The notes under the pieces are model-generated. The model ran no database searches and was not told the DNA's origin. It saw only the letters and a list, made by a program, of their open reading frames with translations. Of a stretch of DNA of 64,000 nucleotides, positions 769 to 61,195 are shown piece after piece. Position 1 is the first letter of the stretch, and each line of letters starts with the position of its first letter. The stretch covers positions 21,376,913 to 21,440,912 of the forward strand of contig OZ018410.1 of assembly GCA_963969595.1 (NCBI GenBank), given 5' to 3'. This DNA comes from Neckera pumila. Its lineage: Eukaryota > Streptophyta > Bryopsida > Hypnales > Neckeraceae. Position numbers and translations under genes: made by a program.

Positions 769-1683
769 CCCCTAAAGGCCCAAGGCCTTTTTTTTGCCGA
801 AAAACATCCAATATTGCCTTTTTTAAGGCAAAGAGTAAACAAATTTTAAAAAATGTTTTTTTGCACATCTAATCAAAGGATCTTACACCTTACTAGTATG
901 AAAATGTGTGGAAATTTTTTTTGAATTTTTGACCGCACAAATTGAAAGATACATGCGTTTAAAGTAAAAAAGATAAGTTTTTTAGCACATTGTGGCTAGA
1001 TTTTTTGATTTTGAACATTTTTAACTTTAAATATTTGCACTATAGAGTTTTGAGCTTTAAATTTTTATAGTGGAGAAATGAGCTGAGAGTCTAGGAAAAA
1101 AAATCCAAAAAAAGAAGAAATTAATTATTAAAAAAATATTAAGTTGAAACAGGTACAAGATAGTAGGAAATTCTAAAATATTAATATCTTTTATATGGAA
1201 TTGAAATGCACTAATTCCAATGGTGAGATTGTTCTAGCACAAAAAATAAATCGTGTGGAATTTCATTTTTTCTTTAAATCATAAAAATTGCATTCAGAAA
1301 TGAATCCTACAAATTCTTTTTTTTTCAAGAAGATGCTCTAAGTGCCCGAAAACCATCATCGTCCATAACTTTCTCATAAAGAATCCAAACAAAATGAATC
1401 AAAGCTTTAAAAATGGAAAAAATATAAGCTATTAGAAAAAAGTTTAAAAAAGTTAAAAATTAAAAACTTGCAAATTTTTTTTGCTGCCCCCCAAACAATG
1501 TTTTGAGCTTATTCGGGCATAACTTTTTTTCTTGGGCATCGATTCAAAAAAATTTGTATTCCCACAAAGCTTAGCATTTTTTTTGTCTTCAAAAAGTTTT
1601 TGAAAATCACGACAAAAATTCAGCCCGTAAATACCTTCCCAAAAGCCCATTTGTCTCCCAATTGGACAATGGGTTGTTAGGGA
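769..1683 (+). mobile_element. TTAA-flanked A-type non-autonomous element, 915 bp
   Basis: TTAA at 765-768 precedes CCCCTAAAGGCCCAAGGCC, and the right end GGGTTGTTAGGGA is followed by TTAA at 1684-1687. U2 carries the orthologous copy at 34,806-35,694. U3 has the uninterrupted flank with a single TTAA at 52,178-52,181. The interior is AT-rich with no long ORF. A subterminal stem (ttgtctccc / ggacaa) lies just inside the right end. The TTAA duplication fits the piggyBac superfamily; no transposase is present. Confidence 0.9.
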
Positions 1684-1883
1684 TTAATAGAAAAGTACGC
1701 TTGAGAAAGGAAGAAGGCTAGCCCAAAGCCCATGGATGTAGCAAGTAGTATAATTTTCCATTAATCCCTCCATACGATGCACAACCACAATTTAAGTATG
1801 TACAAGTCTTTTTTGTGCATAATATCTTGGTGTAAAGTGGGTAACTGCTATTTTTTGCTCCTGAACTTAATTATCATTATTAA

Positions 1884-2621
1884 CCCCTAAATGATGGACC
1901 CATGACCATTGATTTCAAACCTCATTGTCTGTCACACAATTTGCTACCATTTTGCAACTAGATATAAATGAATAATTTTATATTTATTTTTCAGAGATGA
2001 AAGTACATGTCTTCTTTACTTCAGAAAAAATTAAATTTTTTTTTTTGTAGAAAGTTAAGTTTTTTAAGAATTTCTAGAGAAAAGTGAAGAAAAATCATAT
2101 TAAATAGGAAATTATTTCAAAAAATCTGAAAATTTCACCATAAGTGTATATCACAATGACAAACATCATGGTGTAAACTCAATTTCCGTGTCATTCTATA
2201 AATAGAAAATAATAGACATTGAAAATACACACAATGTTCAAATTGCAATAAAATATGCAAAATTCGGAATTTTTTCAAATTCAAATTGGAGTAGAAACTA
2301 GTGTAGACGATCTTCTTTTTTTTCATTTGACTTAAATTCAAAAAACATCATTTTTGTGGAGAAATTTTAGATTTAAAGCAAGGAGCAACAACTTCTCAAA
2401 ATACTCTAAATTAGCATATTTTGTGATCCGTTTTTTTAGTAGCTTCTCATTTCCGTGAAGACAAAACTTAGAAAGAGTACAAACTCAATTGGATACTCTT
2501 CATAATCCAATGTGAAAGGTCAATAAGGAAAAGGAAGATGAAAAAAATGCTTTTGAACTCTTCTTAGCTCAACAGTATTGTCATTGGACCGCCATGGAAT
2601 GGAATCCGCGACACTCCAGGG
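1884..2621 (+). mobile_element. TTAA-flanked element, divergent subfamily, 738 bp
   Basis: TTAA at 1880-1883 is followed by CCCCTAAATGATGGACCC. The right end GACACTCCAGGG is followed by TTAA at 2622-2625. The sister unit U3 shows the empty site, with attattaaattga reading straight through TTAA at 52,390-52,393. The termini match the other TTAA elements, but the interior differs from the A and B types. No ORF of note. Confidence 0.85.
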
Positions 2622-3032
2622 TTAAATATGTCAACTTTTCACATTATTTTATTAGCAAGTGAAAAGAGGTTTCTACACACCAAAGAACACAACATTTGAT
2701 ACCGAATGCAAAAGTCATTAAAGAACTAAGTTTGATTCTAAATTGGTTTCTTCCACATAGATATATAATTGATTTGGAAGATGTGTCCAAATTGAAGATG
2801 GCGGTTTAGGGTCAGTGCTCCATTTGGAAGTGCCCATCTTAATTGTACATAGAACTATAATAAACTATAATCTTTGGTATGCATGTTGTACTATATTTAT
2901 CTATAGATGTGCCTTTTAAACCATGCATTCCTAAATTAAGGGACTTTGTTCTTAAAGACATTTAGAAGCCAATGCCTTGACAATTTAAATAGTAGCCTAG
3001 CTCAACAAACTATGTCCCTCTTCAAGGAGTGG

Positions 3033-6410: not shown

Positions 6411-6689
6411 AGATTGGTTAAATAGAGAAACCTAGATTACATAAAAAAATATATCTATTTTCCAAAATTAGGACATTGTCAACCCAATGTTTCATTTTTT
6501 TTTATAGAGGAATTTGTGAACTTTTTTTGGAGATGCTTGTTGAAGAAAAGATGCGCATATAGATATTTCTTACATATCTCCGCAATTGAATTAAAAAAAT
6601 TCATCATTAATTGTTTTTAGTAAAATATTATGTAAAACCATGAAAGTTGACTTTAAAAATTCACCAAAAATGAAGTTTTGCTATTTTAA

Positions 6690-7609
6690 CCCCTAAAGGA
6701 CCAAGGTGATTTTCCTATAAAAAAACATTCAAAATTGTCATTTCTATTGCAAAGAGAAAAGAGCTTTAAAAGTTGTTATTTCTTGCATATCCAACTGTAA
6801 AATCTTATACTTGACTAGTATGTGAATATGTGGAAGAAATTTCAGAAACTTTGACCATGTAGATTGCAAGATATATGCATTTAAAGTAAAGAAAATAAGT
6901 CTTTTTGCACCTTGCTTGACTAAATTTTTTGGCTTTTAGTCTTTTTAGTTCAAATTTTTTGCACTGTGGACTTTGATTTTCTACTTGTTTATGTTAAGTA
7001 GTTAAGTCAAGAATCTCCCAAAAAAACTTAGGATAAAAAGCACTTAATTTTCACTCATAAAAAAATTGTTAAATAGAAGTGGGTTCAAGATTGAAGAAAA
7101 AACTAAATTGTTAATAGATTTTAGATGGAATTGAATCACAATAATCCCAACGGTGAGATTGTTCTAGCAAGAAAATCTAACCTTGTCTAACAATTTTTTT
7201 GAAAAGTTCTAAAAATTGCATTGAAAAACAAATTCTACAAGTTACTTTTTCAAGAAGATGCTTAGATTGCCCAAAAAACTATGTCCATAACCTTCTCATT
7301 ATTAGTCCAAGTTGAATGAAACAAAGCTTCACATATAGACAAAAATATAGTCTTTGAGAGAAAAATTTGAAAAAAAATTATTTTGACTTTTTATGATTTT
7401 TTTTGGGCTACCCGCAGAACTCCAATTTTGCTTATTGTGCCATAACTTTTGCTCCTAGGCATCAATTAAAATAAAAATTATATATTCACAAAGCTCTTGC
7501 AAAAATACACAACTTCAAAAAATCCCCAAAACTATTATGAAAAATTGAGACAGTAGGAACTTGCCCGGACTCAATTTGTCCCCCGAGGAGACAAATGGTC
7601 CTTTAGGGG
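6690..7609 (+). mobile_element. TTAA-flanked A-type element, 920 bp
   Basis: TTAA at 6686-6689 is followed by CCCCTAAAGGACCAAGG one base in. The right end is TGGTCCTTTAGGGG, and the flank beyond it is decayed to TTGTAA. The termini are near-perfect inverted repeats. Just inside the right end is a strong stem, ATTTGTCCCC / GGAGACAAAT. The length matches the copies at 769, 26,608 and 59,898. Confidence 0.85.
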
Positions 7610-8235
7610 TTGTAATTTGGAATACATGATTGGGATTAAGGTAGGAATGTAATGATATAAGAATTATATAAAAATTATAAAAAATGGTGTTTGAAAATGG
7701 GGGCATTTGTGCAGGAACAAAAGGGGGCAACGATACTTTTGTTCCTCCATTGTACAGGGTGCATCTCTTGAAGTCGATTATTCTAAAGCAAACAATTTTT
7801 TTTATTTTTTTATTTGAAACACATGGACAAGGAGAAAACAACTTTCACTAGTACCATCAATCTTAGAACAAATTCAAGGTTTTTAACCAAATGTTCATTA
7901 TTGGAAGATTTTTTTGAATTTACAATGAAGGCATGAAAAAAATTAAGTAGAAACCGAGCAAAATTTAGCCAGTTTTGGGATTGCTAACCAATACCATCCT
8001 TTGTTGGTCCAATTTATGACACAAAAGGTACAATTCATATTTCCTTTAACTACTTTGCAATGCCACCTCGGCAAGCTTCAGTTTGGAGGTTATCCTCCTT
8101 CTGGTTTTGGAATGACTCCAAACTTTCTAGAATTGGAAATGTACCCCCAGTACCCTAGTGCGAATGGAACACCACCAGGAGTTTTCCACCATTTTTGTAG
8201 AACAATCCCACGGTTGATCAAGGTAAACTCCAGAT
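7610..8235. other. Intergenic; short proline-rich open frame only
   Basis: A 78-codon open frame at 8,001-8,237 (plus) includes the phrase QFGGYPPSGFGMTPNF but begins and ends without gene context. It has no match to a family I know and is absent from the sister units. I would not call it a gene. Confidence 0.3.
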
Positions 8236-8343
8236 AAATGAGAGCAAGCCCATTGTAAGCTAAATTATGTTAGTGGTGTACATTCAAGTATTGAAAATGT
8301 ACATCACTAACATAACTTAGCCCACAATGGATTTGCTCCATTT
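8236..8343. mobile_element. Near-perfect palindromic MITE, about 108 bp
   Basis: The left arm starts AAATGAGAGCAAGCCCATTG and the right arm ends CAATGGATTTGCTCCATTT. The arms pair almost to the centre, leaving a loop of about 13 bases. The sister unit U2 carries the same element at 36,450-36,561, so it predates the U1/U2 split. The structure could fold into a small-RNA-like hairpin if transcribed. Confidence 0.75.
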
Positions 8344-8668
8344 GGTATGCAGTGGGGTAGTTTATCTTATAGGCCTTTGATTTAGCAACTTCCGGTTCTA
8401 ATTTGGATGTGGTTTTGTTTTTTATGTTCTTTGTTTTCTATTATCTCTTATAGATTTTTCTTAGAAATAGACTTCCAACGGTGAAAGACAAACATATTGA
8501 ATTGTTGACGTATAAACATTGCTTTTCCAAATTGGTTGAATGAAAGCTTTTTTCAAAATAGGAATTAAATGAATCAATTCTTCACACGGGCAAATTCGGT
8601 ATTGTAAGCGCCGCAACAAAATTGCAAAAAGCAATGAATCTTTCTATTGTCGTGTATGATTATCTTTG

Positions 8669-8672
8669 TTAA
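8669..8672. other. Empty TTAA target site (U1) for the element at 36,889
   Basis: The flank gattatctttgTTAAtgaa is continuous here. In U2 the same flanks are split by an 889-bp element between gGTAA and TTAAtgaa. Confidence 0.85.
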
Positions 8673-8768
8673 TGAATATATAATTAACCATTTTTTATTT
8701 AACAAAGGTGAGAATTATAGGTCTCTTTCAAGGAGAAAGTGCCTTGGTGGCAAGCCAAAACATCAACC

Positions 8769-9194
8769 ATTAGGAAAAAATAAGCCCTGGAAGGGGCTCC
8801 TTTCTAGTGTAAGCTTCCCCTCCAGGGAATTCAAGGGAACTAAACAGTGATTTACAATAAAAAAATATTTAAAAAATAATAAAAATATTAAAATATTAAT
8901 AAAAAATAATAAAAATAATAAAATAATAAAAAATTGTAATGATTGCAATCTGACATGGCATGTGTGGTGCCATGTCAGATTTAAAAATTTTGTAATTTTG
9001 AATTTATTTTAATAAATTATTTCTTAATGTTTTTTAAAGCAGTTTAACTGCACTCTTCCTTGCTATTCCGTGCCATTCCGCGTCTGCAATTTGCAAAAAA
9101 AAAAGAAAAAAAAAAAAAAAAAAAAAAAATTTGGCTTGCGTTTCCTATGTTCTCAGGTCTTACAGCCTCTTCCAGGGTTCATCTTTTTCCTAAT
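8769..9194. mobile_element. MITE specific to U1, about 426 bp
   Basis: The left end ATTAGGAAAAAATAAGCCC mirrors the right end, which reads TCATCTTTTTCCTAAT; inner matches extend to CCTGGAAG / CTTCCAGG. The sister flank in U2 (aacatcaacaatggcaag, near 37,865) is uninterrupted. It contains an AT-only stretch, an A-rich run at 9,097-9,129 and a small palindrome around ctgacatggc (8,950-8,980). No target duplication is clear. Confidence 0.7.
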
Positions 9195-17800: not shown

Positions 17801-17992
17801 GTGCTTGTTATATACCTCCAACAGTGGACTTCAAATACAAATACAAAATAGACTTATTCACAAGAATGTTTCACAAGGTGCTCAAATTATCCAACTATAG
17901 AAAGAGATTCATCTCCAAAGAGTGTCTCTTCACCTCCAAGCTTTGTTTTATATAATTAACACTATCAATAAAGACTATTAGACAGTCCTTAA

Positions 17993-18559
17993 CCCCTAAA
18001 GGACCGGAGAGGTGTCCAGATTTCCAAAATTGTGAAGATCTATTATAAAATGCAACTTAGAAGAATATTTTAATGATGACTATCAAACATTAGTTGTAAA
18101 TGCTATTTATAGATCACATCCATACGATTAGATCAACAAAAATGTATACCAATATTTTTCAATAAAATTTGAAGCCAGAAATTGGAAATTCCTTCTAAAA
18201 TCAATTGTAGATTGAATATTTATGATTTTTAAAAGATTTTTTTTTCTATAAGTTCAATATATTGAGTTCTATTTATAGAGATTTTTGAAGATTTTTATTT
18301 GATTTTTTGATTCAAGTCATTTTTGAAGGGTCATTTTTTGAACTGAAAAAGTTACATTTTGAGACTAGACCTCCCGATACCTTTTGAATTACAGAATATT
18401 TGCAAAGTAAAATCTTCATAATTTGAACCATACAAATGTTAAAGAACTAATATAAGAATCATCAAACAAAATTGATGGATGAAAAAATGCATTTCAGTGA
18501 GTTCAGGATGTGTTTCCGTTCATTTATAGTTCAAAATCTGCACTCATGGTCCTTTAGGG
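17993..18559 (+). mobile_element. TTAA-flanked element, short C-type, 567 bp
   Basis: TTAA at 17,989-17,992 is followed by CCCCTAAAGGACCGG, and the right end GGTCCTTTAGGG is followed by TTAA at 18,560-18,563. The termini agree with the A-type elements but the interior is different. No ORF. Confidence 0.8.
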
Positions 18560-18563
18560 TTAA

Positions 18564-21879: not shown

Positions 21880-21883
21880 TTAA

Positions 21884-22448
21884 CCCCTAAAGTCCCATTG
21901 TTCTATCAAGGGACAAAATTGATTTTGGGCACGCTCTTACAATCTCAATGTTTGTTGTAAATTTTTAAAGTTTTTGTGAATATAGAAAAAACCATGAGCT
22001 TTTTGAGAATATAATTTTTATTTCAATCACTATCCAAGATCAAAAGTTATGGCACAATAAGCCCCAAATTTTTTCATGAGAGAAAATTAAGTGTATTATT
22101 TTCTTTTGAATTTGTTTCCCTAGACTCTCAACTCAATTCTTCAACATTAAAAACTCAAAATTCAAAATCCATAGTGCAAAAATTTTAAGTTAAGAAGATT
22201 TAAAAGCTAAAATATCTAGTTCAGCAAGGTGCATATAAATTTGTTATCTTCACTTTAAATAAAAATATCTTGCAATCTATGCTGTCAAAGTTTCTAATAT
22301 TTCTTTCACATATATTTACAATAGTCTAGTACAAAAAGATCCTACAGTTAGTATGCAAAAAAAAAAAAAAATCTTTATAGTTCTTTGCTCTTTGCAATAG
22401 AAATGGTGGTTTTGAATGTGTTTTTATGAAACCTTGGGACTTTAGGGG
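21884..22448 (-). mobile_element. TTAA-flanked A-related element, minus orientation, 565 bp
   Basis: TTAA at 21,880-21,883 is followed by CCCCTAAAGTCCCATTG, and CTTGGGACTTTAGGGG is followed by TTAA at 22,449-22,452. The reverse complement of the right half matches the left half of A-type elements (tgcaatagaaatg, ctagtacaaaaagatccta). The internal length is reduced, probably by deletion. Confidence 0.85.
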
Positions 22449-22561
22449 TTAAATTACATTAAAATATTTTTTGAATTAGAAATTGTTACTTATAAATTAC
22501 ATATTTTCACCAAAAATCTTATCACCTACATCAATTTTTTGTTGTTCTTTTAGATTGGTTA

Positions 22562-25049: not shown

Positions 25050-25450
25050 AGATTAAGTTAGTGATGGGTACTGCTCAAACGAAGTTTTTTTACTGAAATT
25101 CTGGACCTCCTCTTATCTGGTGGAGTAGGGGATTCTATTGTCATGAATCAAGGACTAATTTATGTCACCACACGCAACTGGAATATGACCATTGCAAGTA
25201 TCAAGTGAAGCAGAATGATGCTTCTGGGCCTCATGACCCAGGTTTTTTTGGGCCGCGTATCAGCTTGATGGCGTCATTGCATAGGCCAATTTTTGGAGGG
25301 ACAAGGACATAGAGGTAAGAAGAATCTCGCAGATTGAGTGAATTTTGTTCGAAATAAGAAAAATTGTTGCTCATGACAAGGACGTGACAAGGACGTGACA
25401 AGGACGTGGCTTTGTAATGTGACATTTAGAGTGCTTGTATTTGCTTTTAA

Positions 25451-26603
25451 CCCCTAAAGGCCCAAGGCCTTGTTTTTGAACACCCAAAACTACCATATAT
25501 ATAGCAAAGAGTAAATAGAATTGAAAAATATTTTTTTTGCACATCTAACCAAAGGATCTTACACCTAACTAGTATGAGAGTGTGTGGAAAACATTTCAAA
25601 TTTTTTGACCGCATAGATTGCAGGAGATCTGCATTTAAAGTGAAAAAAACAAGTTTTGCAACACATTGTGGGACTAGATTTTATGATTTTGAACATTTTT
25701 AACTTAAATGTTTTGCTCTATAGAGTTTTGAGCTTTAAATATATGTAATAGAGAATTGAGTTGAGAATCTACGGGGAAAAAAACTCTAAAAAAAATTAAT
25801 TTTCATTTTAAAAAAATTTGTTAAGTAGAAGTAGGTACAAGATAGAAGGAAAATCTAAAATATGTATCTTTTTTCTATGGAAATAAAAAGCACTAATTCC
25901 AGTGGTGAGATTGTTCTAGAAAAAAAAAAAAAAACTTGTCAAACTTTTTGTTTGAAAAATTGTAAAGTTGCACTCATAAATGAATCCTACAAGTTATTCT
26001 TTTTAGGAAAATGCCTTAAGTGCCTAAAAAATAAAATTTTCCATAGGATTTTCATAAAAAATCCAAATGAAATGAATTAAAGCTTTCCCAATAGAGAAAG
26101 GTACTAGCTTTGTCCCACTAAAAAGCTCTTGATTTTACCTCCTTTTTTTTCTTAGTAGTTTTGATTACGCATATTGGAAGCTTGCTTGGATCCAATTTTT
26201 ATTTTAGTTGCATTGAACAGATACAATGTTCTTCATGGATTGTGGTGGTATAAAATTTAGACCATTCTGAATTATACATTTTACAACATGGTCAATGAAA
26301 TTAGTATAAGAAAAACATGAGATAAAATAAGGAGCTTTTTAGTGGGACAGAGGTAGTGTAATCTATTAAGAAAAATAAATAAAAATTAAAAAATTCTTTT
26401 TGCTTCCCCCGTCTTCTATTTGAGCTTGTTTGGGCATAATTTTTTTCTTGAATATCGATTTGAGAAAAACATCATATTCCCATAAAGCTTAGCAGATTTC
26501 CAATCTTCAAAAAAAAATTTAGAAAATTATGAAAACAATTCAGCCCGTAGGTACCCGCCCAAAATCCCATTTGTCCCCCAAACGGACAACATGCTTTCAG
26601 GGG
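25451..26603 (+). mobile_element. A-type TTAA element carrying a nested Stowaway-like MITE
   Basis: TTAA at 25,447-25,450 is followed by CCCCTAAAGGCCCAAGGCC. The right end GCTTTCAGGGG is at 26,603, after the subterminal stem (tttgtccccc / ggacaa). Removing the nested MITE (26,104-26,356) leaves about 0.9 kb, the standard A length. It abuts a second, inverted element at TGAA 26,604-26,607, a decayed shared TTAA. Confidence 0.85.
26104..26356. mobile_element. Stowaway-like MITE nested in an A-type element, 253 bp
   Basis: The left end CTAGCTTTGTCCCACTAAAA follows TA. The right end TTTTAGTGGGACAGAGGTAG is its inverted partner. The terminus CTACCTCTGTCCCA resembles the Stowaway consensus beginning CTCCCTCCGTCCC (known family feature). 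The right TA is blurred (TGTA). Confidence 0.7.
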
Positions 26604-26607
26604 TGAA

Positions 26608-29007: not shown

Positions 29008-29136
29008 TTAAAGTTCATTCCAAAGCAAAAGTTAGAAGTTTCTTTTTGAATTTGAATGTTATAATAGATAGGTAAAAATATACTCTATAAGATATTAATT
29101 AATTTTGTTGGACTGTATAGATTGATGCCTACTTAC

Positions 29137-30048
29137 CTCTAAAGGACCAAATGGCTTTTCTTTGGCAACACAACAATTTTGGGCAGCTCACACTAAATGA
29201 AAAACTTTATTGTTTTTCTTTGAGAATTTCACACAACATGTGCCCAAGGAGTAGCTTTAAGGCCCAACAATTTTCAAAACTTTTGAATACATGGTCAAAA
29301 AGTAATTGGATGATATGTCATTTTCAACAGTTGGTGGGCAGCTCAAAAAAATTCTGAAAAATCACTTTTAAGAAAAAATAAAAATTTGAAATTGGTTTTC
29401 GTAGATTTATATATATTGATTTATTCCATTTTGATTTATGAGATGAAAACGATGAGCTGTTCTAGTTTGCGGGCAATTATGGAATCTCTACTCTAAAATA
29501 AACTTTGAAGTCCTTTATTTAACTCAATTTTCAATAATTTTGAAAAAACATAAAAATATTGGATGTAGATTGTTTATCACAACATGACAACCATTGGGAT
29601 TGGAATTTTTCAATTCTATAATTAAATTCTTAACAATTTAGTGTTTTGAATCATTCTCTACCTCTTTCTACTTACTATTTTTTTCCTATATGTTGTACAA
29701 TTCCAAATGATCTGAACTTTTTCAAGCATGTAGCCAACTTGCTTTGAAAAATGAATTCAAAGAGTAGCCACCATTTTGGACATATTTTCATACAAATGTG
29801 ACCTGTGAAGTGCAACTGCCCGATTTTTGCAAGGCCAAGAAAAGGGGTCTGTCAATTCAAATGCTAATATCTTGCAATTTACAAGGTGGAAATTTCTAAA
29901 TTTTTTTCTACATATTCTAAAACAAGCTTACTACAAGATCCTACTGTTACATGTGTCCAAAAATGTTTTTTTCTATGATTTGGTACTTGTACTAGAAATT
30001 GCAATTTTGGACCACTTTGGTGAAAACGTAGTCTTTGACCTTCGGGGG
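29137..30048 (-). mobile_element. B-type TTAA element, minus orientation, 912 bp
   Basis: The left end CTCTAAAGGACCAAATGG follows a decayed TTAC, and CTTTGACCTTCGGGGG is followed by TTAA at 30,049-30,052. U3 runs from gcctact straight to caaaagcattt near 43,012, so the element is absent there. The interior is the reverse complement of the B-type copies at 41,958, 53,262 and 55,483. Confidence 0.8.
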
Positions 30049-30052
30049 TTAA

Positions 30053-35884: not shown

Positions 35885-36447
35885 GGGATTAGATTTTCTT
35901 TCTATCTTAAGTAGAAATAGATACAAGATAGAAGGAAAATCTAAATTATTAGTATCTCCAAAATGGAATTAAAATGCACAAATTCCAATAGTGAGATTGT
36001 TAAAGCAAGAAAACTAAACCATGTGGAATTTTTTTTTTTTAAAATTGTAAAAATTGCATTCAAAAATAAGTCATACAAGTCATTTCTTCAAAAAAGATGC
36101 TCTAATTGCCCAAAAAACAAGATAGTCTATAACTTTCTCATTACAAATCCAAATGTAGTGAATCAAAGGTTTCCAAGTAGACAAAAATGTAGTCTATGAG
36201 GAATTTTCTTTTTAAAAATTCGAATTTTTGGAATTTTTTTGTTGCCCCTTCTCCCCCCCTTCCAAGTTCCAAGCAATTGGGGGCAAAATTTTTGTCCCCG
36301 GGCATTGATTGAAAAAAAATTTATATCCCCACAAAGCTAATAAATTTTTCTATCTTCCAAAAACGTTTGATAAAATTTCAGCCCGTAGGTACCTGCCCAA
36401 AATTCCCATTTGTCCCTTGAAGGGAAGGGACAATGGTCCTTTACGGG
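35885..36447 (+). mobile_element. A-type element, 5'-truncated
   Basis: It begins abruptly inside the A interior (tttctatcttaagtagaaat). It runs through the usual gagattgtt, cccgtaggtacctgccc and stem (catttgtccc / gggacaatg) to GGTCCTTTACGGG and TTAA 36,448-36,451. The left third is missing. Confidence 0.75.
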
Positions 36448-36888
36448 TTAAATGGGAGCAAGCCCATTGTGGGTTAAATTACATTAGTGGTGTACATTCA
36501 AGTTTTGAAAATGTACATCATTAATACAATTTAGCCTACAGTGGGCTTGCTCCATTTGGTTTCAAATGGAGTTGTTTACCTTATAAGCCTTTGAATTAAC
36601 TACTTCAGATTCCAAATTAGATGTAGTTCTATTTTTGATGTTCTTTGTTTTCTGTTTTTCTTACAGTTTTTTCTTAGAAATAGACTTTCAACCAAGTGAA
36701 AGACAAATATGTTGAATTGTTGATGTATAAACATTGTTTTCCCAAATTGGTTGAATGAAAGCATTTTTCATAATAGAAATGGAATGAATCAATTCTTCAC
36801 ACGAGTTTGGTATTGTAAGCGCCGTAGCAAAACTGCAAAAAGCAATAAGTCTTTCTATTGTCATACAATATATGATTATCTTTGGTAA

Positions 36889-37777: not shown

Positions 37778-38477
37778 TTAATGAAGACATAATTAGCCAT
37801 TTTGTATTAATAAAGATGAGAATTACAGATCTCTGTTAAGGAGTAAGTGTCCCATTGGCAAGAACATCAACAATGGCAAGCCCTATCCAAATTGACATGT
37901 CAATCGGGTAGGTTAGAACAAGTCAAATTTGAACAAACTCTAAATGAAACTATTGATAGTTATTGTACAAAACTGCATTGCTGAAAGCCAATGAAAGCAC
38001 AACACATTGACGAGATTTGAATCTGCTGGTAATGGTGCTCCGGGGGATCTCTCTTGGTGCCCCGAGAGCACCTTCCTAACATTTTGAGTACATCATATAG
38101 GGACTTTCTTTTTATTGATTCTGTTTATTGGCTCTATCCTTAGGACGGAGACTCTTGCATCAACTCTTGCATCAACTATAGTTTCTAAATCCTATCTACA
38201 ACCACATTTGCATTGTACATGTGGTTAGAGTTTGGTCGGAGGGGGTGTCCAACTAGTTGGACCTCCCCCCTCTTCCCTATCCAATTGGTTGGATGCCCCC
38301 TCTTTGTTCGATTGGTTGGATGGGGGGGGCAAATTTCACTACAATAGGAAGTAACAATTGCAATGCATCATCAATTATTTTGCAGTGGGTTTGTAGCGTT
38401 CATGGACCTTGCTAACAAATCATGGCCTTGTGTGATCCATTGCAAAAGTCGTAGGCATGGAACCAACGCATATTTAA

Positions 38478-39173
38478 CCCCTGAAGACCAACATGTGTTT
38501 TTTGGCAACATATAAATTTTAGGCAGATACATGTGATTAGAGATTTGCATATTTTGGGCTGAAATTTTAACGGAAGGTGGGGACAAGGAATATCTTTCAT
38601 ATGCACAAAACTTCATGACATTTGGAAATATGAGTCAAAAGTTATTGCATGATAAGTAGTTTGTTTCTCAACTTGGGCAGTCCCAACAGATCAGAAAAAA
38701 TCACTTTTTTCAAAAATGAAAATTTGATTTATTAGATTGGTTTATTGGATTTATATATACGTGGAAAGCTTTGAATCATTACATTTTGATTGATGAGTCA
38801 AAAGTTATGAGGAGTTTTAGTTTGCAAACAGTTATGGATTCTCTACTCTAAAATAAACTTCGAAGTTGTTTATTTTACTCAATTTTCAATATTTTTTGAA
38901 GAAAATAAAATCATAGGATGTAGATTATTTTTGAAAATATTACAACCATTGGCATTGACATTTTCAGTTCCAAAACAAAATTCTCAACAAATTAGTACTT
39001 TGAACCATTCTCTATTTCTAAAAGTTTTTCCACATCTTCTCAGACCAGAGTACTACAAGATCCTACAGTTATATGTGTCCAAAAGTGATATTTTTCAAAA
39101 AATTGATACTTGTACTAGAAATGGCATTTTTAGAGCATTTTTGGTGAGAACATCAGTCAAGGAACTTTAGGGG
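38478..39173 (-). mobile_element. B-type TTAA element, minus orientation, 696 bp
   Basis: TTAA 38,474-38,477, left end CCCCTGAAGACCAACATG, right end AGGAACTTTAGGGG, TTAA 39,174-39,177. The left part is the reverse complement of the right end of the element at 53,262 (aaagttat, tccaatcacatgtacctgcc). U1 lacks it near 9,826, although the flank there differs by a few bases. It is shorter than other B copies, so it is internally deleted. Confidence 0.8.
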
Positions 39174-39392
39174 TTAAGTTATGCCTAAAGTATTGCAATC
39201 TCAAATAGCTGAAAATACATTGCACAACTTAGTATAAAACCATTGCAAAATTGATATTAGATTTCTGGTATTCATTGCAAAACCGCTGCAAAAAATATTG
39301 GAATCTCACCCTTCTGTACTTATGTTTCAACTTCTGTTCCCAAGCTCTTCCTCCATTCCTAAAGTAAGTTATGGCAGATAAATTTTCCTTAA

Positions 39393-41060: not shown

Positions 41061-41421
41061 GAAATCCATTTAGAATCCTACATAAACACAATCAATAACG
41101 TAATGCTAGTTTTAAGGAGGTTTTTCTATGCCAACCTCTTTGAGATAGGCCTACCAGAATTTTAGGAGAGCATGAATCCATGACAAGTTAAATCCTCACA
41201 ACTATTGAGATTTTTTTGAAATAATTGACCTTGCAATCTAATGATAGATTAATGTGGCTTGGCCATGGTCTCTCTAGGACTTACACCAAGATCATGCCAA
41301 GTTTTATTACTATTTTTTTCCTTGGGATCCCGCTTCATGGGGTCGCATTTAAAAGTGGGATACCTTTAGATTTGTGTGCTTTTGGTCCCTTGGTGTGGCC
41401 TTGGTGTAAATTGGCCTTTAA

Positions 41422-41642
41422 CCCCTAAACATCTCAATCCTTTTCTAAATATTTGCACATCTTTGCTTATATCTTTATACAGAAACATCATTTACTAGAA
41501 TTTCATGAATTTGTTCATTAAATAAGGTTGTCTTTTCTAGATTCAAATATTACATTAGATGAATGAGAACTTAGTTGGATGAAACAGTGCCTCAAAGGCA
41601 TTTGTTCATCGTCCAAAATACAGACGTTGAAGCACTTTAAGG
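41422..41642. mobile_element. Short TTAA-flanked element, 221 bp
   Basis: TTAA 41,418-41,421, left end CCCCTAAACATCTC, right end GAAGCACTTTAAGG, TTAA 41,643-41,646. U2 has the empty site at 28,150-28,153 with the flanks ggcct and acttcaattta. Confidence 0.85.
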
Positions 41643-41957
41643 TTAAACCTCAATTTAGGAAGATGACTAATTATAACTAATAATGTGATTTGATTGCATG
41701 TCATTCCAAAAAAAAGTCAAGTGCAATTTAAAATTTAATACAAACTATAGACCAAAGTAAAAAAAGATGACTTTTAGGATAATTTTAGCATTATAGATAA
41801 TCACTATATACAAATTGACCTCTAAAGGAATAAAGAGCCCACTTTGGATTTTTTGAACACTTGGATAAGATATATTGACTTTATAATTTGAAGTTTTTGC
41901 ATAAAACTTTTAGGATGGATGCTAATCCTGATAATCTGTTCGTGAAGCTTTGCTTAA

Positions 41958-42901
41958 TCCCTAAAGGTTTTAACTATGTTTCACCAAAAAAACGCTCCAA
42001 AACTGTCATTTCCAGTACAAGTTCTAATTTCTGGAAAAAAAACAATTTTGGATACATGTAACCATAAGATCTTGTAGTAAGGTTGTTTAAAAAGATGTGA
42101 GAAAAGTTTCAAAAATTTCCGCTGTGTAGCCACTGCAAGATATTAGCATTTGAAGTGACAAATTCCTTTTTTTGTCCCTGCAAAAAACTAGGCAGCTGCA
42201 CTTCACAAGGTCACATTTGTATGAAAAAATGTCCAAAATGATTGTAATTATTTGGATTCATTCTTCAAGGTAAGTTGTCTACATGCTTGAAAATTTTCAA
42301 ATCATTTGGATTTGTACAACATATAGGAAAAAAATGGTAAGTAGAAAGAAGTAGAGAATGATTCAAAATACTATATGTTAACAATTTAGTATTGGAATTC
42401 AGAAATTCCAATCCCAATGGTTTAATGTTGTGATAATCAATCTACACCTTATTTTTTATATTTTTTTCCAAAAATATTGAAAATTGAGTTAAATAAAGGA
42501 CTTCACAATTTATTTTAGAGTAGGGTTTCCATAATTGCCCGCAAAGTACGCAAAGCTTAAAATCCTCATAACTTTTGTCTCAAAAATCAAAATGGAATGG
42601 TTCAAAGCTTTCCTTGTGTATATAAATCTAGAGAAGCAATTTCGAATTTTTACTTCTCAAAAAAATGATTTTTAGAGAAGTTTTTTTGTTGCCCCAGCTG
42701 CCCGCCGAGCAATGAAAAGTACATATCATACCATAATTTTTTAACCATATAGTCAAAATTTATAAGAATTACTAGGCCTTAAAGCCACTCTTTGGGAGAA
42801 TGTTTTGTGAAAATTTCAAAGGAAAAAAATAAAACCTCCATTTGTAGTGATTTGTCCAAAATCGCTATGTTGCCAAAAAACACTATTTGGTCCTTTAGGG
42901 G
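41958..42901 (+). mobile_element. B-type TTAA element, 944 bp
   Basis: TTAA 41,954-41,957, left end TCCCTAAAGGTTTTAAC, right end TTTGGTCCTTTAGGGG, TTAA 42,902-42,905. It occupies the same TTAA that holds an unrelated E-type element in U2 (28,480-29,007). No protein-coding content. Confidence 0.85.
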
Positions 42902-43009
42902 TTAAAGTTCGTTCCAAAGCAAAATATGAATTTCAATACCAAAATAGATAGCTAAAAATATGTTCTAAAAAATGTTCATTAATTTTATTGGATAAGATAG
43001 ATTATGCCT

Positions 43010-45264: not shown

Positions 45265-45394
45265 TAAATGTCCAAATGACTAGTTTTTGGTTGAATATTG
45301 CTCTTCTTTGCCAAGCAATCATTTTTTTCTCCATGTACTTTGTTGAGTTGTCTTTTGTTCGTCATAAATTCGAAAGTAGTCATGGGTCATTAAT

Positions 45395-46491
45395 CCCTAA
45401 ATGCCCAAGGCACCAAATTTTGGTGTCAACAAAACTTTGAAGTTAATCCTTAATTGCCTAACCAACCAAATATAGTTGGTCCAAAATTTTAGGCTCATTT
45501 TAGGGTGGGCAGTTGAATTCCTTTGGCCATTTAAAATTTTTTTACGGGGAGTTTTGAAGATTATCTATTGAAACTTTTTTATTTTTCATTGAAAAAAGGT
45601 AAATATTTGATTTTTGAGAGGTCCTCAGAGGCATATGTGTCTCATTGAGGAAGAATAAAGCTTACAAATTTTACTTGATTCTTGGCTTTAATCAAAGCTT
45701 GCCAATTTCACTTGAATTAAGCTCATTAAACATCTACATGGTTAGGTTTTGAAAAAAAAACAATTTGCGTCATTGGAGATAACTATAAGTCCATGATCTA
45801 ATTTCATAGGAAATACACACTAGGAAAGGCTTAGGCACTTAGGGGTTAAATAAGACCTAATTAAGTTTCTATTTTTAACAATTTAAAATTTTTCATCAAT
45901 ATCTAGGGTATTTTATCTAAACTGGCGCCGCAAAATATTTCAAAATATTCCTTTTTGCTTGTCCAGAATTCTTTTGTAGTCTAATTTTAGCATCAAAAAT
46001 CCAATTTTGAAAATGAATGATTATGATTTTTCTGTTTAAAATATTGTGCAAGGGTACCCATTGCAATCTTGACTTTCTGTAGTGTTGAGGGCTCTTAGAA
46101 ATGAGCCTCAAGTACACCGAGAAAAAATCACACTAGAAATTCATTTAATTAATTGTAGAGTAGATTTTGAGAAGCCATAAATTAATTGAGGTTATGCATA
46201 TTAGGCCCTTCAACCTCCTATTTTTTTGGTGACCATTTTTTTAGATTTGTCATGTAAAAAGAGAGCTAAAAGATTTTCATAGTTTTGAAACTTTCAAGAT
46301 CAAACATTATATCTTTCAGTCCATAAACGATATTGCCGTATTTTCTTTTCCTATATGATCTCTAGCATGTCTAATTTGAATTTGTACAGTTACAATTCAA
46401 AAAAAATTGACTCAAATTATCATAATGTTGGCTTTTTGTTCAATTTCAGCAAATTCCAAGAAGCTCAAAATAGGTCTTGGCCTTTTAGGGG
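45395..46491 (+). mobile_element. TTAA-flanked E-type element with a nested TTAA element
   Basis: TTAA 45,391-45,394, left end TCCCTAAATGCCCAAGGC, right end TCTTGGCCTTTTAGGGG, TTAA 46,492-46,495. It is related to 28,480-29,007. The nested element at 45,447-45,845 splits it. Confidence 0.85.
45447..45845. mobile_element. Nested TTAA element, 399 bp
   Basis: TTAA 45,443-45,446, left end TCCTTAATTGCCTAACC, right end GGCTTAGGCACTTAGGGG, TTAA 45,846-45,849. The related host element in U2 reads ctttgaagTTAAataaagcc intact at 28,529-28,532. Confidence 0.85.
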
Positions 46492-46495
46492 TTAA

Positions 46496-51650: not shown

Positions 51651-52177
51651 AGAAAATTCTTCAATAATTTTATTTATATTTTGTCCTAACACTTTACTTT
51701 TTCTTTATGTTGCAATTTTTCATGGTAATTTGTACTCGAAAGTTTTCAATGAACATTCAATTGTTTGTGTTTTTAATTTATACCATTTATAAACCCTAAA
51801 TTCCTTAGAAACTAAAAAGTCCAATTCTCCGGAAATAAATTGGCCAATTGTTGGGAATAAATTTTCAAAGTTTGTGAATATACAAAATATCTCCAATTCA
51901 AAACAGAATTTGCTACATTATAGGAAGAAATTTCCTCTCACAAAGGACATTGAAAAAAAATAAAAATCCAAAAGTAATTTAATCCATCACCTACCTGCTA
52001 TGACCAAATCTTACACATGCCACCTGGCACAACGCTTCTTGATGCAAAGGCAAGTTTCAATGGTCCAAGCAACACTCTCACATTTTATAAATACAAAGAC
52101 CTAACCACAATTTTCAGCCACCTTTTTCATTGTACCGATGAGATTTGTAAATTTCATACATTGTATTTAGGGCTTAG

Positions 52178-52181
52178 TTAA
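52178..52181. other. Empty TTAA target site (U3) for the element at 769 and 34,806
   Basis: The sequence tttagggcttagTTAAtggaaa is continuous, against tttagggctttgTTAA ... TTAAtagaaa in U1. Confidence 0.9.
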
Positions 52182-52389: not shown

Positions 52390-52393
52390 TTAA
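52390..52393. other. Empty TTAA target site (U3) for the element at 1,884
   Basis: The sequence actattaTTAAattgatc is continuous here. U1 splits the same flanks with 738 bp between TTAA copies. Confidence 0.85.
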
Positions 52394-54959: not shown

Positions 54960-56750
54960 AAGTGATATTGCATTTTGATTTCTCTTGGCGATTGATTCAA
55001 GAAGTTATTGACAGAATGGATTTTGGGCACGATCCTATGGTCTCAATATTCATCACAATTTTTCTAAACCTATTGTGAAGATAGAAAAACACATTAGCTT
55101 TAAGGGAATATAAAGTTTATTTAAATCAATGCCTGGATACAAAAGTTAGGGCACAAAAGGTCCTTTTTGGGTGTGGCGGGCAGAAATTGCCTCTCACAAA
55201 AAATAAAAGTTTAATTTTAAATTTTTTTTCTCATAAATTATAATTTTATCTACATGGGAAGCTTTGATTCATTCCATTTGGATTTGTTATGTGAAAGTTA
55301 TGGGCAATCTTATTTTTTCGGACAATTAGAGCTGTTTTTTGATAAAAAAACTTATAGGATTCATTTTTGAATGCAATTTTCACAATTTTTCAAAAAAACT
55401 TGTTTGACAAGGTTAAGTTTGCTTGCTAAAACAATCTTGCCAATGGGATTATAGAGCTTTGATCCCATCTTAGAGCTATTAATTCGTGCAGGTTTTTGAC
55501 TATGTTTTCACCAAAACTGCAATTTCTAATACAAGTACCAAATTTTAGAAAAAAATTAGATTTGTACACATGTAACCATAAGATCTTGTAGTGCGCTGGT
55601 TTGAAAAGATGTGGAAAAAATTTCAGAAGTTTCCACCATGTAGATTGCAAGATATTAGTGTTTGAATTGAGAAAATCCTTTTTTTGTCCCTATAAAAAAC
55701 GGGCAACTGCACTTCACAAGGTCACATTTGTATAAAAAAATGTCTAAAATCGTGTTTACTTTTTAAATTCATTTTTGAAGTCAAGTTGGCTATAAACTTG
55801 AAAAATTTCAGATCATTTGAAATTGTACAACATACATGAAAAAATTAGTAAGTAGAAAGAAGTAGAGAATGATTCAAAACACTAAATTGTTAAGAATTTA
55901 ATTATAGAATTGAAAAACTCCAATCCCAATGGTTGTTGTGTTGTAATAAACAATCTACATCCAATGTTTTTTTTAATTTCAAAAATATTGAGAATTGAGT
56001 TAAATAAAGGACTTCACAACTTATTTTAGAGTGGAGATTCCATTACTACCCGCAAACTAGGACTCCTCATAATTTTCATCTCATTAACAAAAATGGAATG
56101 ATGCAAAGCTTTCTATGTATTTATAAATCTAAAGAAGCAACTTCAAATTTTTATTCTTTTAAAAAGTGATTTCTTAAGAATTTTTTGAGCTGCCCGCTGA
56201 GCATTGAAAATCACATATCATACAATAACCTTTTAACCATGTTGTCAAAAGTTATGAAAATTCTTGAGCTTTAAAGCTACTCTTTGGAAAAATGTTGTGT
56301 GAAAATTTCAAAGAAAAAGATAAAAAATCCGCTTGTCGTGAGTTGCCTGAAAATGCTATGTTCTCAAAAAAGCATTAATGATTTAGTTTTTTCTTTCAAC
56401 TTTGGACCTACTTCTATTTAACAAATTTTTTAAAAATGAAAATGAAGTGCGTTTTTAAAAAAAGAAAATTTTTAGATTTTCAACTCAATTCCTTAAAACC
56501 AAAAAAATTAAATTCAAAGTCTATAGTGCAAAAAAATTCACAAATGGCGGTCAAAGTCATCTGAAATTGCAGGCTAGTGTTCAAAAAAACAAAATTTTCC
56601 AACTTTGAATGCTAATGTCTTCTAATCTATGTAGTCAAACCTTATGAAGTTTTTAGTACATGATCTGAGATAAGTTAAGTACAAGATCCTGTGGTTAGAT
56701 TTAAAAAAAAAGAATTATTTTCTTCTCTTGGATGAACGCAGCAGAACTAG
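54960..56750 (-). mobile_element. Damaged A-type element, split by a nested B-type element
   Basis: About 55,020-55,480 and 56,379-56,720 are consecutive parts of a minus-orientation A element (tgggcacgatcc, cttttcacttattcg-like phrases, then tttggacctacttct and ctatagtgcaaaaaa). The continuity is broken exactly at the TTAA pair of the nested element. Both outer termini are decayed, so the limits are approximate. Confidence 0.65.
55483..56374 (+). mobile_element. B-type TTAA element nested in an A-type element, 892 bp
   Basis: The host reads gagctaTTAA (55,479-55,482) then, after the insert, TTAA (56,375-56,378) tgatttag. The intact host at 27,085-27,110 reads gagctattaacaatttag. The interior matches B-type copies at 41,958 and 53,262 (ttgactatgttttcacc, gtaaccataagatcttgtag). 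Its terminal CCCCTAAAGG bases are decayed. Confidence 0.8.
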
Positions 56751-57450: not shown

Positions 57451-59387
57451 CTATTAGAACCAATTTTCTACAATATGGTAACTATTCCTTACGCTAAAGC
57501 TCAAATGATCAAAGGTATGGATCTTTAATTTAAAGACAATGTGATCATTTTTCTTTGATTGGCCACATTTTTCCCACAAGGTACCAGTGTAATGTCTGAC
57601 ATTCCATGCTAGTTTATTTTTGAGTAATCTTTTTTTTTCCCAATGGCAAAGGCTTATTAATAGGCAAGACTCATGTACAACAATGGAACTCATTTCCAAA
57701 AGCACTGGATATAAAGAGAATGGTAATATTTAATATTAATATATCTCATATTGCTTAAGATGTTCTTATTGACTTTGGGTTGAGTGCAAGCATTAGTAAT
57801 GCAAATGAAGCAAGCATTCAATCACATGTTAGGATCCTTTAAGCTTATCATTTATAAGAAATCAAAGTGGGAACATTCAAGTAACTAAAAAAGAGCTTGA
57901 AGAAACTAGTTTCACCCCTTAATTCATCAATTCATCTCTTGAAGTTTCATAAAGATGTATCATAAACAAAAACTTGGAGAATTAATTTGGTCTTGGTATA
58001 TAAAAAGAAGTTGTGGATTGTGAATTTTGAAAAATATTGGAAGAAAAAATTGATTTGTGATTTTTTTAGCAATATTTTAAAAAATACAAACATAGAGTCT
58101 AAACTAAATTCTTTTAAATAATTAATTTCATCTAGAATATAGACAATTTGAGAGTGATTCTTTTTATAATGAATGTATAATTGTAAAACTAAAACTAAAA
58201 TTATTATTTTTTTAACTAAATTAAAAATTAAAACAAGGAATTTGCTGCTCTTTGTACTACCTTGACAATGATTGAGTACCAGCCCTTTTTTGAGGGGCAA
58301 AATGGAGCCAGAAAGCACCATTTCGTAGTAAAAAAAAAAATTTTGCCAGAAAAGTTTCAATCTTATTTAAAATATGGATGAAAATGTCAAATGTGGATGA
58401 AAAAGTGTATGAATTTGATTGAAAAGTGTTTTATGGTACAAAAGATGGATGTACAAAGGAATAAAATGCTTCACCAAATTTTAAGTGATCACCATCTTGG
58501 CACTTTTTCAAAAACCCTAAAACAAGGACTCAATGAGTACTTCAGGCTTTGGAGAATTTGGAGAACAAGCTTTTTCAATTCTAATTCTTCAATTAATTAT
58601 GGGAATGGTCATTATAGCTCAATATATTGATAGTCTTTTTTTATAGCCTAGCATCCTAATTTATCTACTATTTTGGGTGCATCAATTTTTTAATATTTAA
58701 TTATGATTTGAAGCAACAAGGTTGAGTACATGTAGATTGACGTTTTCAATTTCCACCTAATCTTTTGTATAAGATTGAAATTGTTCTACAAGTACTTATA
58801 CTCTTAAAAAATAATGCTACTTAGATCATAAGTAATAAATTATATTTCATTTATAGTTAACTATATTACATATTTATGACGAATTTCTTCCAATTTTGAA
58901 AAATTAAGAAGGTTTTTTAATATTGCATATTAATGTACCAAAGACTTCTGACTAAATGTGACAATAGTTTCAATAAAAGTGCATTGGATTTTTTAGTGAC
59001 ACCCGAGAAATGTTTCAAGATTGAATACTGGAGGTGGTCAAAATCTCTATTATAACTTTAATGTTAATTGTCACCTCCTTGAGATTATACTAAAGTCAGA
59101 ATAACTTTCTAAAGCATTTGTAGGTCATAGCACTTTGGTTCCTAGGACAATTTTATTGCATATTTTGACCAAAAATTTAATTTTTAAGACATAAAAAATA
59201 AAATAAAATAAAACTATTACAAATTTTTAAGGATCAATTATATATAATAAACAATTCAAGGTAATAATTTGTCTTTAAGTTTAAGTTCAAGAGATTTGAA
59301 GTTTCTTGTTTAATGTACTTAGATTAAACCATGGTAAAGTATTGACGATGAATAAATTCCTTTATTATTTATTTGCCTTTATATAAT
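57451..59387. other. Intergenic AT-rich sequence, no supported gene
   Basis: Open frames at 57,454-57,705 and 57,947-58,360 (minus) and 58,391-58,630 (plus) show no domain, start context or conservation. No repeat boundaries were recognised. Confidence 0.4.
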
Positions 59388-61195
59388 GCCTAAGTTCTAA
59401 GACCATTTTTCCATCAATAACCACTCAAAACAACCATTTCCAATGCAAAGAAAAAAATTAGAACATTTGTTTTTTTGTATATGTAACCATATGAGTGAAC
59501 AATAGACTAGTATGAAAATGTTTAGAAGGTATTTCAAAAACTTTGACTACATAAATTACAAAAAATATAAGTGTTAAAGTGAAGAAGACAAGATTTCCTC
59601 TATCTAGTTTGCCTAACTTAAAAGGCTTTGATTCCTCTCAACTTTAAAATTTTATATTACAGATTTTGAATTAAAGAAAAATTTATGTTAAAGAATTGAA
59701 TTGAGAGTTTGAGAAAAAAAATGAAAACCCTTCTTGATTTTCATTCTTTAAAAATTAGATGATATCAATGTAGGTACAAGATAGATTGAAGGAAAAACTA
59801 AATTGCTCATTGCTCCAAGAGGGAATTGAAACACAGTAATCCCATTAGTGAGATTGTTATAGAAATCAAACTAAACCATGTGGTATTTTCTTTTTATCCC
59901 TAAAAGACTATTTGTCCCACCGGGGAACAATTTGGGTCCAGGCAAGTTCCTATTATCTCAATTTTAAGTGACATTTTTTGGAATTTTTGGAGGTTTATAA
60001 TTTTACAAGAGCTTTGTGAATATATAATTTTAATTTTAACTGATGCTTGGGAGCAAAAGTTATGGCACAATAAGCAAAAATGGAGTTTAGAGGGCAGCAC
60101 CAAAAAGAACACAGAAAGTCAAAATAATTTTTTTTAAATTTTTTTCTCAAAGATTATATTTTTGTCTACATCTGAAGCTTTGTTTCATTCAATTTGGACT
60201 AATAATGAGAAAGTCATGGACAATCTTAGTTCTTTAGGCAATCTAAGCATCTTCTTGAAAAATCACTTGTAGAATTCATTTATGAATGGAATTTTTAAAA
60301 ACTTTCAAAAACATTCATTAGATAGGGTTAGATTTTTTTGCTAGAAAAATCTCATTGTTGGAATTATTGAGATTCAATTCAATCTAAAAGCTATTAACAA
60401 TTTAGTTTTTCTTCAATCTTAAACCCACCTCCATTTAACAATTTTTTAATGAGTGAAGATTAAGTGCTTTTTTTTCATAATTTTATTTTGTAGATTCTCA
60501 ACTCAACTATTTAACATAAATAAGTAGAAATCAAAATCAATAGTGCAAAAAATTTGAACTAAAAAGATTCAAGGCCAACAAATCTAGTCAAGCAAGGTGC
60601 AATAAAACTTGTTTTCTTCACTTTAAATGAATATATCTTATAATATACAGGGTGAAAGTTTCTGAAATTTCTTCCATGTATTCATATACTAGTCAAATAC
60701 AAGATCTTACAATTGGATATGCAAAAAACAACAATTTTTAAAGCTCTTTTCTCTTTGCAATAGAAATGACAATTTTGAGTAATTTTTGGTAGGAGAATCA
60801 CTTTGGTCCTTTAGGGTTTAAATTGTGAAAATTGAGTTAAAAAATAAATTCAATATATTATTTTCTCAAGAATTTGCAAAAAATGCCATCAAAACAAGAT
60901 GCTCTACAACTTTTACATCACTTATCCGTATAGAATGAATAAAATCTTTCTATATAGATAAATATATAATCTATAAAAATTTGTATTTTTTATTAATTCA
61001 ATTTTTTGTTGTTACCGCCCACCCTTGCTTGATTTTGGTTTGGATGACATAACTTTTGCTCCCAATCACTGATTGAAAAAAAAATATCATCTTTTTTTAA
61101 AATAATCATTTTTTCTATCTTGAAAATATCCAAAACATCATGCCAAAAATTGGGATTATATACAGGAACTTACCCTAAGGAACTTGTGGGAATCA
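59388..61195 (+). mobile_element. A-type element, plus orientation, split by a nested A-type element
   Basis: 59,388-59,893 is the left part (cctaagttctaagacca, accactcaaaacaaccattt, gagattgttatag). 60,822-61,195 is the right part (gcataacttttgctccc-like, gggattatatacaggaacttaccc). The outer termini are decayed. Confidence 0.7.
59898..60817 (-). mobile_element. A-type TTAA element, minus orientation, 920 bp, nested
   Basis: Preceded by TTAT. The left end CCCTAAAAGAC is followed by the stem tttgtccca / ggggaacaa; the right end CTTTGGTCCTTTAGGG is followed by TTTAAA. The length and reverse-complement match to 6,690-7,609 are close. It is inserted in an opposite-orientation relative. Confidence 0.8.

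What the first reader, a model, noticed from the sequence alone, without database searches (positions are those of the whole stretch)
769..60817. Abundant TTAA-specific, CCCCTAAAGG-terminated elements: a piggyBac-like set in a plant genome
At least fifteen intact or nearly intact elements with termini CCCCTAAAGG...CCTTTAGGGG lie between TTAA copies, in several subfamilies (A and B about 0.9 kb, others 0.2-0.7 kb), filling roughly a quarter of the window. TTAA duplication with a CCC-start terminus is the hallmark of piggyBac transposons (established), which are poorly documented in land plants. No transposase is in the window, so the driving enzyme is unknown.
Basis: partly seen in the sequence, partly recalled or inferred. 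Interest (0 to 1): 0.88.

Follow-up and report, generated by a model that had tools for sequence, protein, structure and literature searches.

The report
TTAA-targeting mini-transposons in a plant
A quarter of this stretch of plant DNA is made of short "jumping" elements without a recognisable gene of their own that landed in the four letters TTAA, a habit typical of the piggyBac family known mainly from animals; the enzyme that moves them was not found.

Summary
Families A and B (about 0.92 kb, distantly related) and C (about 0.5 kb) cover 16,159 of 64,000 bases (25.2%). Singletons of 0.2-0.75 kb share their ends: CCCCTAAAGGNCCA, with TTAA outside. Among 24 end-like sites found without using TTAA, 16 have exact TTAA outside, with all four positions similarly conserved (19-22 of 24). 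Old segmental duplications inside the window allow a direct test. Of 8 insertion events with a readable unoccupied twin site, 5 twins show one exact TTAA, 2 show TTAA with one substitution and 1 is unclear. Two other insertions in the same segments carry TA and a 9-10-bp repeat instead. So these are non-autonomous, TTAA-specific DNA transposons. TTAA plus a 5'-CCC end fits piggyBac and speaks against Kolobok (5'-RR), mariner (TA) and Harbinger (3 bp). Sola-type (4-bp) enzymes, reported from a moss, remain open. No transposase was found, and 14 genome-wide search calls did not complete, so the piggyBac name is probable, not shown. New member of a known kind, in a host group where such elements are thinly documented.

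The parts
765..1687 (+). A1, full family A element, 919 bp between TTAA copies (all coordinates include the flanking tetranucleotides where present)
   Evidence: empty twin site at 52178-52181 with one TTAA
34802..35698 (+). A1p, duplicated copy of the A1 insertion; left TTAT, right TTAG, mutated
6686..7613 (+). A2, full family A element (right flank now TTGT)
21880..22452 (-). A7, family A element with internal deletion, 569 bp, TTAA on both sides
25447..26607 (+). A3, family A element with extra internal sequence
   Evidence: A3+A4 block absent at ~40796, which has one TTAA
26604..27529 (-). A4, family A element abutting A3 at a shared boundary tetranucleotide (now TGAA)
35905..36451 (+). 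A8, left-truncated family A element, right end with TTAA
36885..37781 (+). A5, full family A element (left flank now GTAA)
   Evidence: empty twin at 8669-8672, exact TTAA
59389..61177 (+). host family A element interrupted by A6
59893..60821 (-). A6, full family A element nested in another A (left flank now TTTA)
55010..56746 (-). host family A element interrupted by B5
55479..56378 (+). B5, family B element nested in A at an ATTAAT site, TTAA on both sides; own termini degenerate
29132..30052 (-). B1, full family B element (left flank altered)
   Evidence: twin site downstream of 42905 reads TCAA, single copy
41954..42905 (+). B2, full family B element; occupies the same TTAA as C1 in the sister segment
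53258..54183 (+). B3, full family B element
38474..39177 (-). B4, family B element with internal deletion
   Evidence: twin site at ~9800 not clean, a few bases shorter than expected and without TTAA
28476..29011 (+). C1, family C element, 532 bp
45390..45849 (+). C2, family C element, 456 bp
45952..46495 (+). C3, left-truncated family C element
17989..18563 (+). D1, single element, 571 bp, same termini (orientation arbitrary)
1880..2625 (+). E1, single element, 742 bp, CCCCTAAATG left end, weak right end (orientation arbitrary)
   Evidence: empty twin at 52390-52393 with one TTAA
39389..39610 (+). F1, small element, 218 bp (orientation arbitrary)
   Evidence: twin at ~10050 reads TGAA, single copy
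41418..41646 (+). G1, small element, 225 bp, weak right end (orientation arbitrary)
   Evidence: empty twin at ~28151 with one TTAA
52178..52181 (+). unoccupied twin of the A1/A1p site, single TTAA

Best explanation
These are non-autonomous (MITE-like) DNA transposons with short terminal inverted repeats (CCCCTAAAGGNCCA, about 14-18 bp). A transposase supplied from elsewhere binds the ends, cuts the element out and inserts it at TTAA, which is duplicated. Shown: shared ends, TTAA specificity, single-TTAA empty sites, nesting, no transposase domain in frames of 110 aa or more. Inferred: cut-and-paste movement, supply of the enzyme in trans, and that the enzyme is of the piggyBac superfamily.
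For: Shared ends far beyond chance. 16 of 24 core-only sites carry exact TTAA (T21, T22, A19, A22 of 24). 30 of 40 catalogued ends are exactly TTAA, per-position 36, 36, 36, 37 (part of these ends were located with TTAA in the pattern, A1p duplicates A1, and the two B5 rows there are out of register). Of 8 twin sites, 5 have a single exact TTAA and 2 have TTAA with one substitution. Outside the TTAA, none of 18 elements (A3 and A4 taken as one block) has a 5-, 8- or 9-bp direct repeat and 2 of 18 match over 3 bp, so no longer duplication hides there. B5 sits inside an A element whose consensus has ATTAAT there. Two different elements, C1 and B2, use the same TTAA in sister segments. Two other insertions in the same segments show TA and a 9-10-bp repeat, so TTAA is not a property of the region. 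Published piggyBac hallmarks: TTAA duplication, TIRs of 12-19 bp, CC[C/T]T end (PMC2872659, passages); CCC starts common (PMC10813416, passages). Kolobok, also TTAA-specific, has 5'-RR ends (PMC9587614, passages).
Against: No transposase or autonomous relative was seen. The first four bases are mostly CCCC (position 4 is C in 31 of 40 ends, T in 8), not strictly CC[C/T]T, though one coral piggyBac MITE family also begins CCCCT. One of the 8 twin sites (B4) is not a clean single TTAA. A 2023 review names seven TIR superfamilies of plants, Sola among them and piggyBac not (PMC10741241, passages). DNA alone cannot tell a 4-bp stagger on TTAA from a 2-bp stagger on TA inside an obligatory TTAA.
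Confidence: 0.62

Rival explanations
1. The same elements are moved by a Sola-type (for example Sola3-like) transposase, which also makes 4-bp duplications.
For: Sola has 4-bp TSDs and is reported from the moss Physcomitrella (PMC10741241 and PMC9033089, passages). That Sola3 prefers TTAA is recalled, not read; the original Sola paper was not held.
Against: The CCC terminus is the described piggyBac mark; Sola termini are described as very variable, so this is weak evidence. No transposase domain in the 13 scanned frames.
Confidence: 0.14
2. The elements belong to a TA-inserting superfamily (mariner/pogo) or a 3-bp Harbinger-type one whose enzyme happens to demand an extended TTAA target.
For: TTAA contains both TA and TTA/TAA, so each single insertion could be read with a 2- or 3-bp duplication. 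Mariner and PIF/Harbinger MITEs are known in plants, though described as low in copy number in lower plants (PMC12550479, passages).
Against: Only 11% of TA dinucleotides in the window lie in TTAA, yet the outermost T and A are about as conserved as the inner two. A 3-bp duplication would break the left-right symmetry of the ends. A TA-flanked family in the same window shows varying outer bases in its two copies.
Confidence: 0.1
3. The elements are Kolobok-derived, the other well-known TTAA-specific superfamily.
For: TTAA target; Kolobok occurs in green and red algae (PMC9587614, passages).
Against: Kolobok termini are 5'-RR...YY-3'; here position 1 is C or T in 39 of 40 catalogued ends.
Confidence: 0.03
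4. An undescribed plant transposase superfamily with TTAA specificity drives the set.
For: No enzyme seen; the three protein searches gave no close named relative of the host's proteins, so the genome looks little studied; families are old and diverse.
Against: A known superfamily already has the same target and a matching terminal signature.
Confidence: 0.09

Closest known systems
piggyBac-derived MITEs, e.g. coral CMITEs (PMC2872659, passages read)
   Same: TTAA duplication, short TIRs starting CCC, no coding capacity, several families with shared internal sequence
   Different: CMITEs are about 100 bp and come from a genome with isolated piggyBac elements; here elements are 0.2-1.2 kb, ends are CCCCTAAAGG, the host is a plant and no partner is known
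Sola DNA transposons (reported in the moss Physcomitrella)
   Same: 4-bp target duplication
   Different: Described elements are mostly 2-9 kb with very variable termini; no sequence link tested here
Kolobok DNA transposons
   Same: TTAA duplication
   Different: Kolobok ends are 5'-RR; these are 5'-CCCC
Tourist (PIF/Harbinger) and Stowaway (mariner) plant MITEs
   Same: Short non-coding TIR elements of plants
   Different: Their duplications are TAA/TTA and TA; here the target is the full palindrome TTAA

Membership tests
piggyBac superfamily | TTAA target, duplicated on insertion | tested here: met
   5 of 8 twin sites single exact TTAA, 2 more one base off, 1 unclear; 16 of 24 core-only sites
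piggyBac superfamily | Short TIR beginning CCC / CC[C/T]T | tested here: inconclusive
   Begins CCCCT: CCC start met, strict CC[C/T]T at positions 1-4 not met in most ends; hallmarks
piggyBac superfamily | DDD transposase with DDE_Tnp_1_7 (PF13843) between matching ends | tested here: inconclusive
   None among 13 frames of 110 aa or more in the window; genome search for PF13843 unanswered
piggyBac superfamily | Seamless excision restoring TTAA | not testable with these tools
   Needs excision products; same-site use by C1 and B2 is compatible but has other explanations
Kolobok | 5'-RR...YY-3' ends | tested here: not met
   Position 1 is C31, T8, A1 of 40 ends; definition
Tc1/mariner (Stowaway) | TA duplication with free outer bases | tested here: not met
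   Outer T and A about as conserved as inner TA; expectation 11% of TA sites
PIF/Harbinger (Tourist) | 3-bp TTA/TAA duplication | tested here: not met
   Symmetric 4-base TTAA on both sides and in empty sites; a 3-bp reading of a single site cannot be excluded by DNA alone
Sola | 4-bp duplication | tested here: met
   Length compatible; definition
Sola | Sola DDD transposase between matching ends | not tested
   No autonomous copy available

The most novel reading that the evidence does not exclude
A land plant genome, perhaps a bryophyte, carries or long carried an active piggyBac (or undescribed TTAA-specific) transposase that produced several MITE lineages over a long time, making TTAA elements a major genome component in a group where such elements have hardly been described.
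Probability: 0.5. Interest if true: 0.68.

Novelty: new member of a known kind. Interest (0 to 1): 0.5.

Why it matters
TTAA-specific transposons are thinly documented in land plants, and the record is mixed. PMC10741241 (passages) names seven TIR superfamilies of plants without piggyBac, and the main text of a 207-genome plant MITE survey holds neither 'TTAA' nor 'piggyBac' (PMC12550479, word search; supplements not seen). On the other side, a plant review lists PiggyBac among class II superfamilies (PMC10794571, passages), PMC4438587 tabulates it for all groups including land plants, and a fern repeat table lists 1,230 PiggyBac annotations (PMC6890710). A dense, old and diversified set with TTAA empty sites points to a long-lived enzyme source in the host that can be looked for directly with the terminal sequence. 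A plant-native TTAA transposase would also be of practical use in plant genome engineering (inference).

Tried and rejected
Own-genome search: 14 calls, none answered (12 for the end sequence: 2, 4, 12, 16, 25, 32, 40, 55, 57, 63, 65, 67; 2 for PF13843: 45, 59). Exact pattern TTAACCCCTAAAGGNCCAAGG in viral contigs: 0. TTAACCCCTAAAGGACCA in prokaryote contigs: 1 match, in a Denitrovibrio MAG, taken as chance and not read further. Rfam at gathering score: 0; tRNA: 0. Coding potential of the family consensuses: frames of 85 aa at most, too short for a transposase. Single-strand fold of A2 as DNA: z = -2.18, 0 of 20 shuffles as stable, the 14-bp end pairing visible, no strong foldback. Partners for four lone left ends (3033, 54180, 56816, 61654): none convincing. 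Other indels between sister segments: of 7 looked at and 1 more (51030-51651), one gave TA and one a 9-10-bp repeat; the others gave no clear duplication or could not be interpreted. Host identification: TPD1 query gave 4 hits, the only named one from the moss Ceratodon at 48%; the bromodomain query gave a 78% unnamed JGI metagenome hit, then unnamed and angiosperm GTE proteins, with no named bryophyte among the 120 listed of 493; the LINE fragment gave 5 hits without an organism name. So 'moss' is only a lead. My first empty-site attempt for A5 used the wrong stretch and showed nothing; the right stretch is. Considered and set aside: TTAA as part of a longer TIR with another duplication outside it (0 of 18 elements with a 5-, 8- or 9-bp repeat there).
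Full report
Observation. The terminal word is real and far beyond chance: 7 exact TTAACCCCTAAAGG words (both strands) against 0.0 on average in 20 simulated sequences, and 33 against 0.5 with up to two mismatches. Self-comparison and pairwise and profile work sort the copies into family A (profile 932 bp), family B (916 bp) and family C (525 bp), plus single elements D1, E1, F1 and G1 that share the ends; E1 and G1 have weak right ends. Profiles A, B and C together cover 16,159 of 64,000 bases, 25.2%; the profiles were made from copies in the same window. A and B copies are 46-55% identical over a joint alignment, but the B profile finds A copies and the reverse, and they share conserved inner blocks besides both ends, so they look like two old branches of one 0.92-kb element. 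Substitution distances are 13-32% within A and 15-25% within B: these are old insertions. Four left-type ends with TTAA have no convincing partner.

Target. When sites are picked by the inner ten bases only (CCCCTAAAGG, at most one mismatch), 16 of 24 have exact TTAA just outside, and the four positions read T21, T22, A19, A22 of 24. Allowing exactly two mismatches adds 46 sites, 11 of them with TTAA; most of the rest look like chance matches to the core. In the catalogue of 40 ends from 21 elements, 30 are exactly TTAA and the positions read 36, 36, 36, 37 of 40. Some of those ends were located with TTAA in the pattern, one element (A1p) is a duplicate of another, and two rows (B5) were placed out of register; B5 has TTAA on both sides. 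Only 11% of TA dinucleotides in the window lie in TTAA. Beyond the TTAA, 0 of 18 elements (A3 and A4 taken as one block) have a direct repeat of 5, 8 or 9 bp, and 2 of 18 match over 3 bp.

Empty sites. The window holds old segmental duplications around TPD1-type genes, so many insertions have an unoccupied twin. Eight events could be read. A1 with its duplicate A1p, E1, G1 and the A3+A4 block each face one exact TTAA, and so does A5. F1 faces TGAA and B1 faces TCAA, single copies one base from TTAA. B4 faces a sequence a few bases too short with no TTAA. Two elements are nested in other A elements: B5 where the A consensus reads ATTAAT, and A6 in a T/A-rich stretch where the alignment is weaker. 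C1 and B2, from different families, sit in the same TTAA of two sister segments. This means independent use of one site, or a tandem insertion followed by losses, or excision and reuse; the data do not choose.

Controls in place. In the same sister segments another insertion (43520-44026) has TIR AGGTAAAACAACCCAT and a TA at the empty site, and a second element of that kind is flanked by TA as well. A third insertion (44358-44631) has a 9-10-bp repeat, (C)AAAGAGAGG. The other indels examined (5 of 7, and 51030-51651) gave no clear duplication or could not be interpreted. TTAA is therefore a property of the CCCC-ended set and not of the region.

No enzyme. All 13 stop-to-stop frames of at least 110 aa were scanned against Pfam (5, 8). 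Found: Bromodomain+BET, TPD1_C twice, zf-RVT; one sub-threshold EIAV_GP90 match (E 0.051) is taken as chance. No transposase. Shorter frames were not scanned. The whole-genome search did not complete in 14 tries.

Mechanism. Short inverted ends, a fixed duplicated target, single-site twins, nesting and lack of coding capacity make non-autonomous DNA transposons by far the best reading (about 0.97 in my judgement). Which enzyme moved them is inferred. piggyBac integrates at TTAA and its excision site is repaired without a footprint (start of the abstract of PMC7351741, seen in a search listing). Its elements have TIRs of 12-19 bp with CC[C/T]T ends (PMC2872659, passages) and CCC starts are frequent (PMC10813416, passages). 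Kolobok has 5'-RR ends (PMC9587614, passages) and is disfavoured. Sola makes 4-bp duplications and occurs in Physcomitrella (PMC10741241 and PMC9033089, passages) and stays possible. My estimate for piggyBac is 0.62.

Novelty. A search for TTAA/MITE/plant terms held 59 papers; of the 25 listed, 'TTAA' occurs only in an insect and a coral paper. Other literature searches. One plant paper in those listings holds 'TTAA' three times and was not opened (PMC3310237). Against novelty, a plant review lists PiggyBac among class II superfamilies (PMC10794571, passages), PMC4438587 tabulates it for land plants and a Ceratopteris repeat table counts it (PMC6890710). I call the set a new member of a known kind in a thinly documented host group. 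The host is a plant by its genes; moss is only a lead, from one 48% hit.

Noticed in passing
window 28476-29011 and 41954-42905: Two elements of different families (C1, B2) occupy the same TTAA in two sister segments; B1 lies about 120 bp beyond C1, inverted relative to B2, where the sister segment is empty.
   Followed up: partly
window 43521-44025 and 44792-45266: A separate TA-flanked family with TIR AGGTAAAACAACCCAT, mariner-like by target.
   Followed up: partly
window 44358-44631: Insertion with a 9-10-bp direct repeat (AAAGAGAGG) and inverted ends, Mutator-like by duplication length.
   Followed up: no
window 16160-16858: A palindrome of about 700 bp (82% identical to its own reverse complement), possibly a foldback element.
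   Followed up: no
window 32880-33356 and 49480-50058: Two TPD1-type genes inside old segmental duplications, with further duplicated blocks at 8235-11277 and 36449-40392.
   Followed up: partly
window 22562-23785, minus strand: Uninterrupted frame with bromodomain and BET domain (GTE-like); best match is an unnamed metagenome protein at 78%.
   Followed up: partly
right ends of family A elements, e.g. window 7560-7609: The family A consensus carries an extra inverted pair (CCATTTGTCCC...GGGACAATGG) just inside the right terminal repeat, seen by eye; a possible second transposase binding site.
   Followed up: no
window 3033, 54180, 56816, 61654: Left-type element ends with TTAA and no convincing right partner; probably broken or unrecognised elements.
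   Followed up: partly
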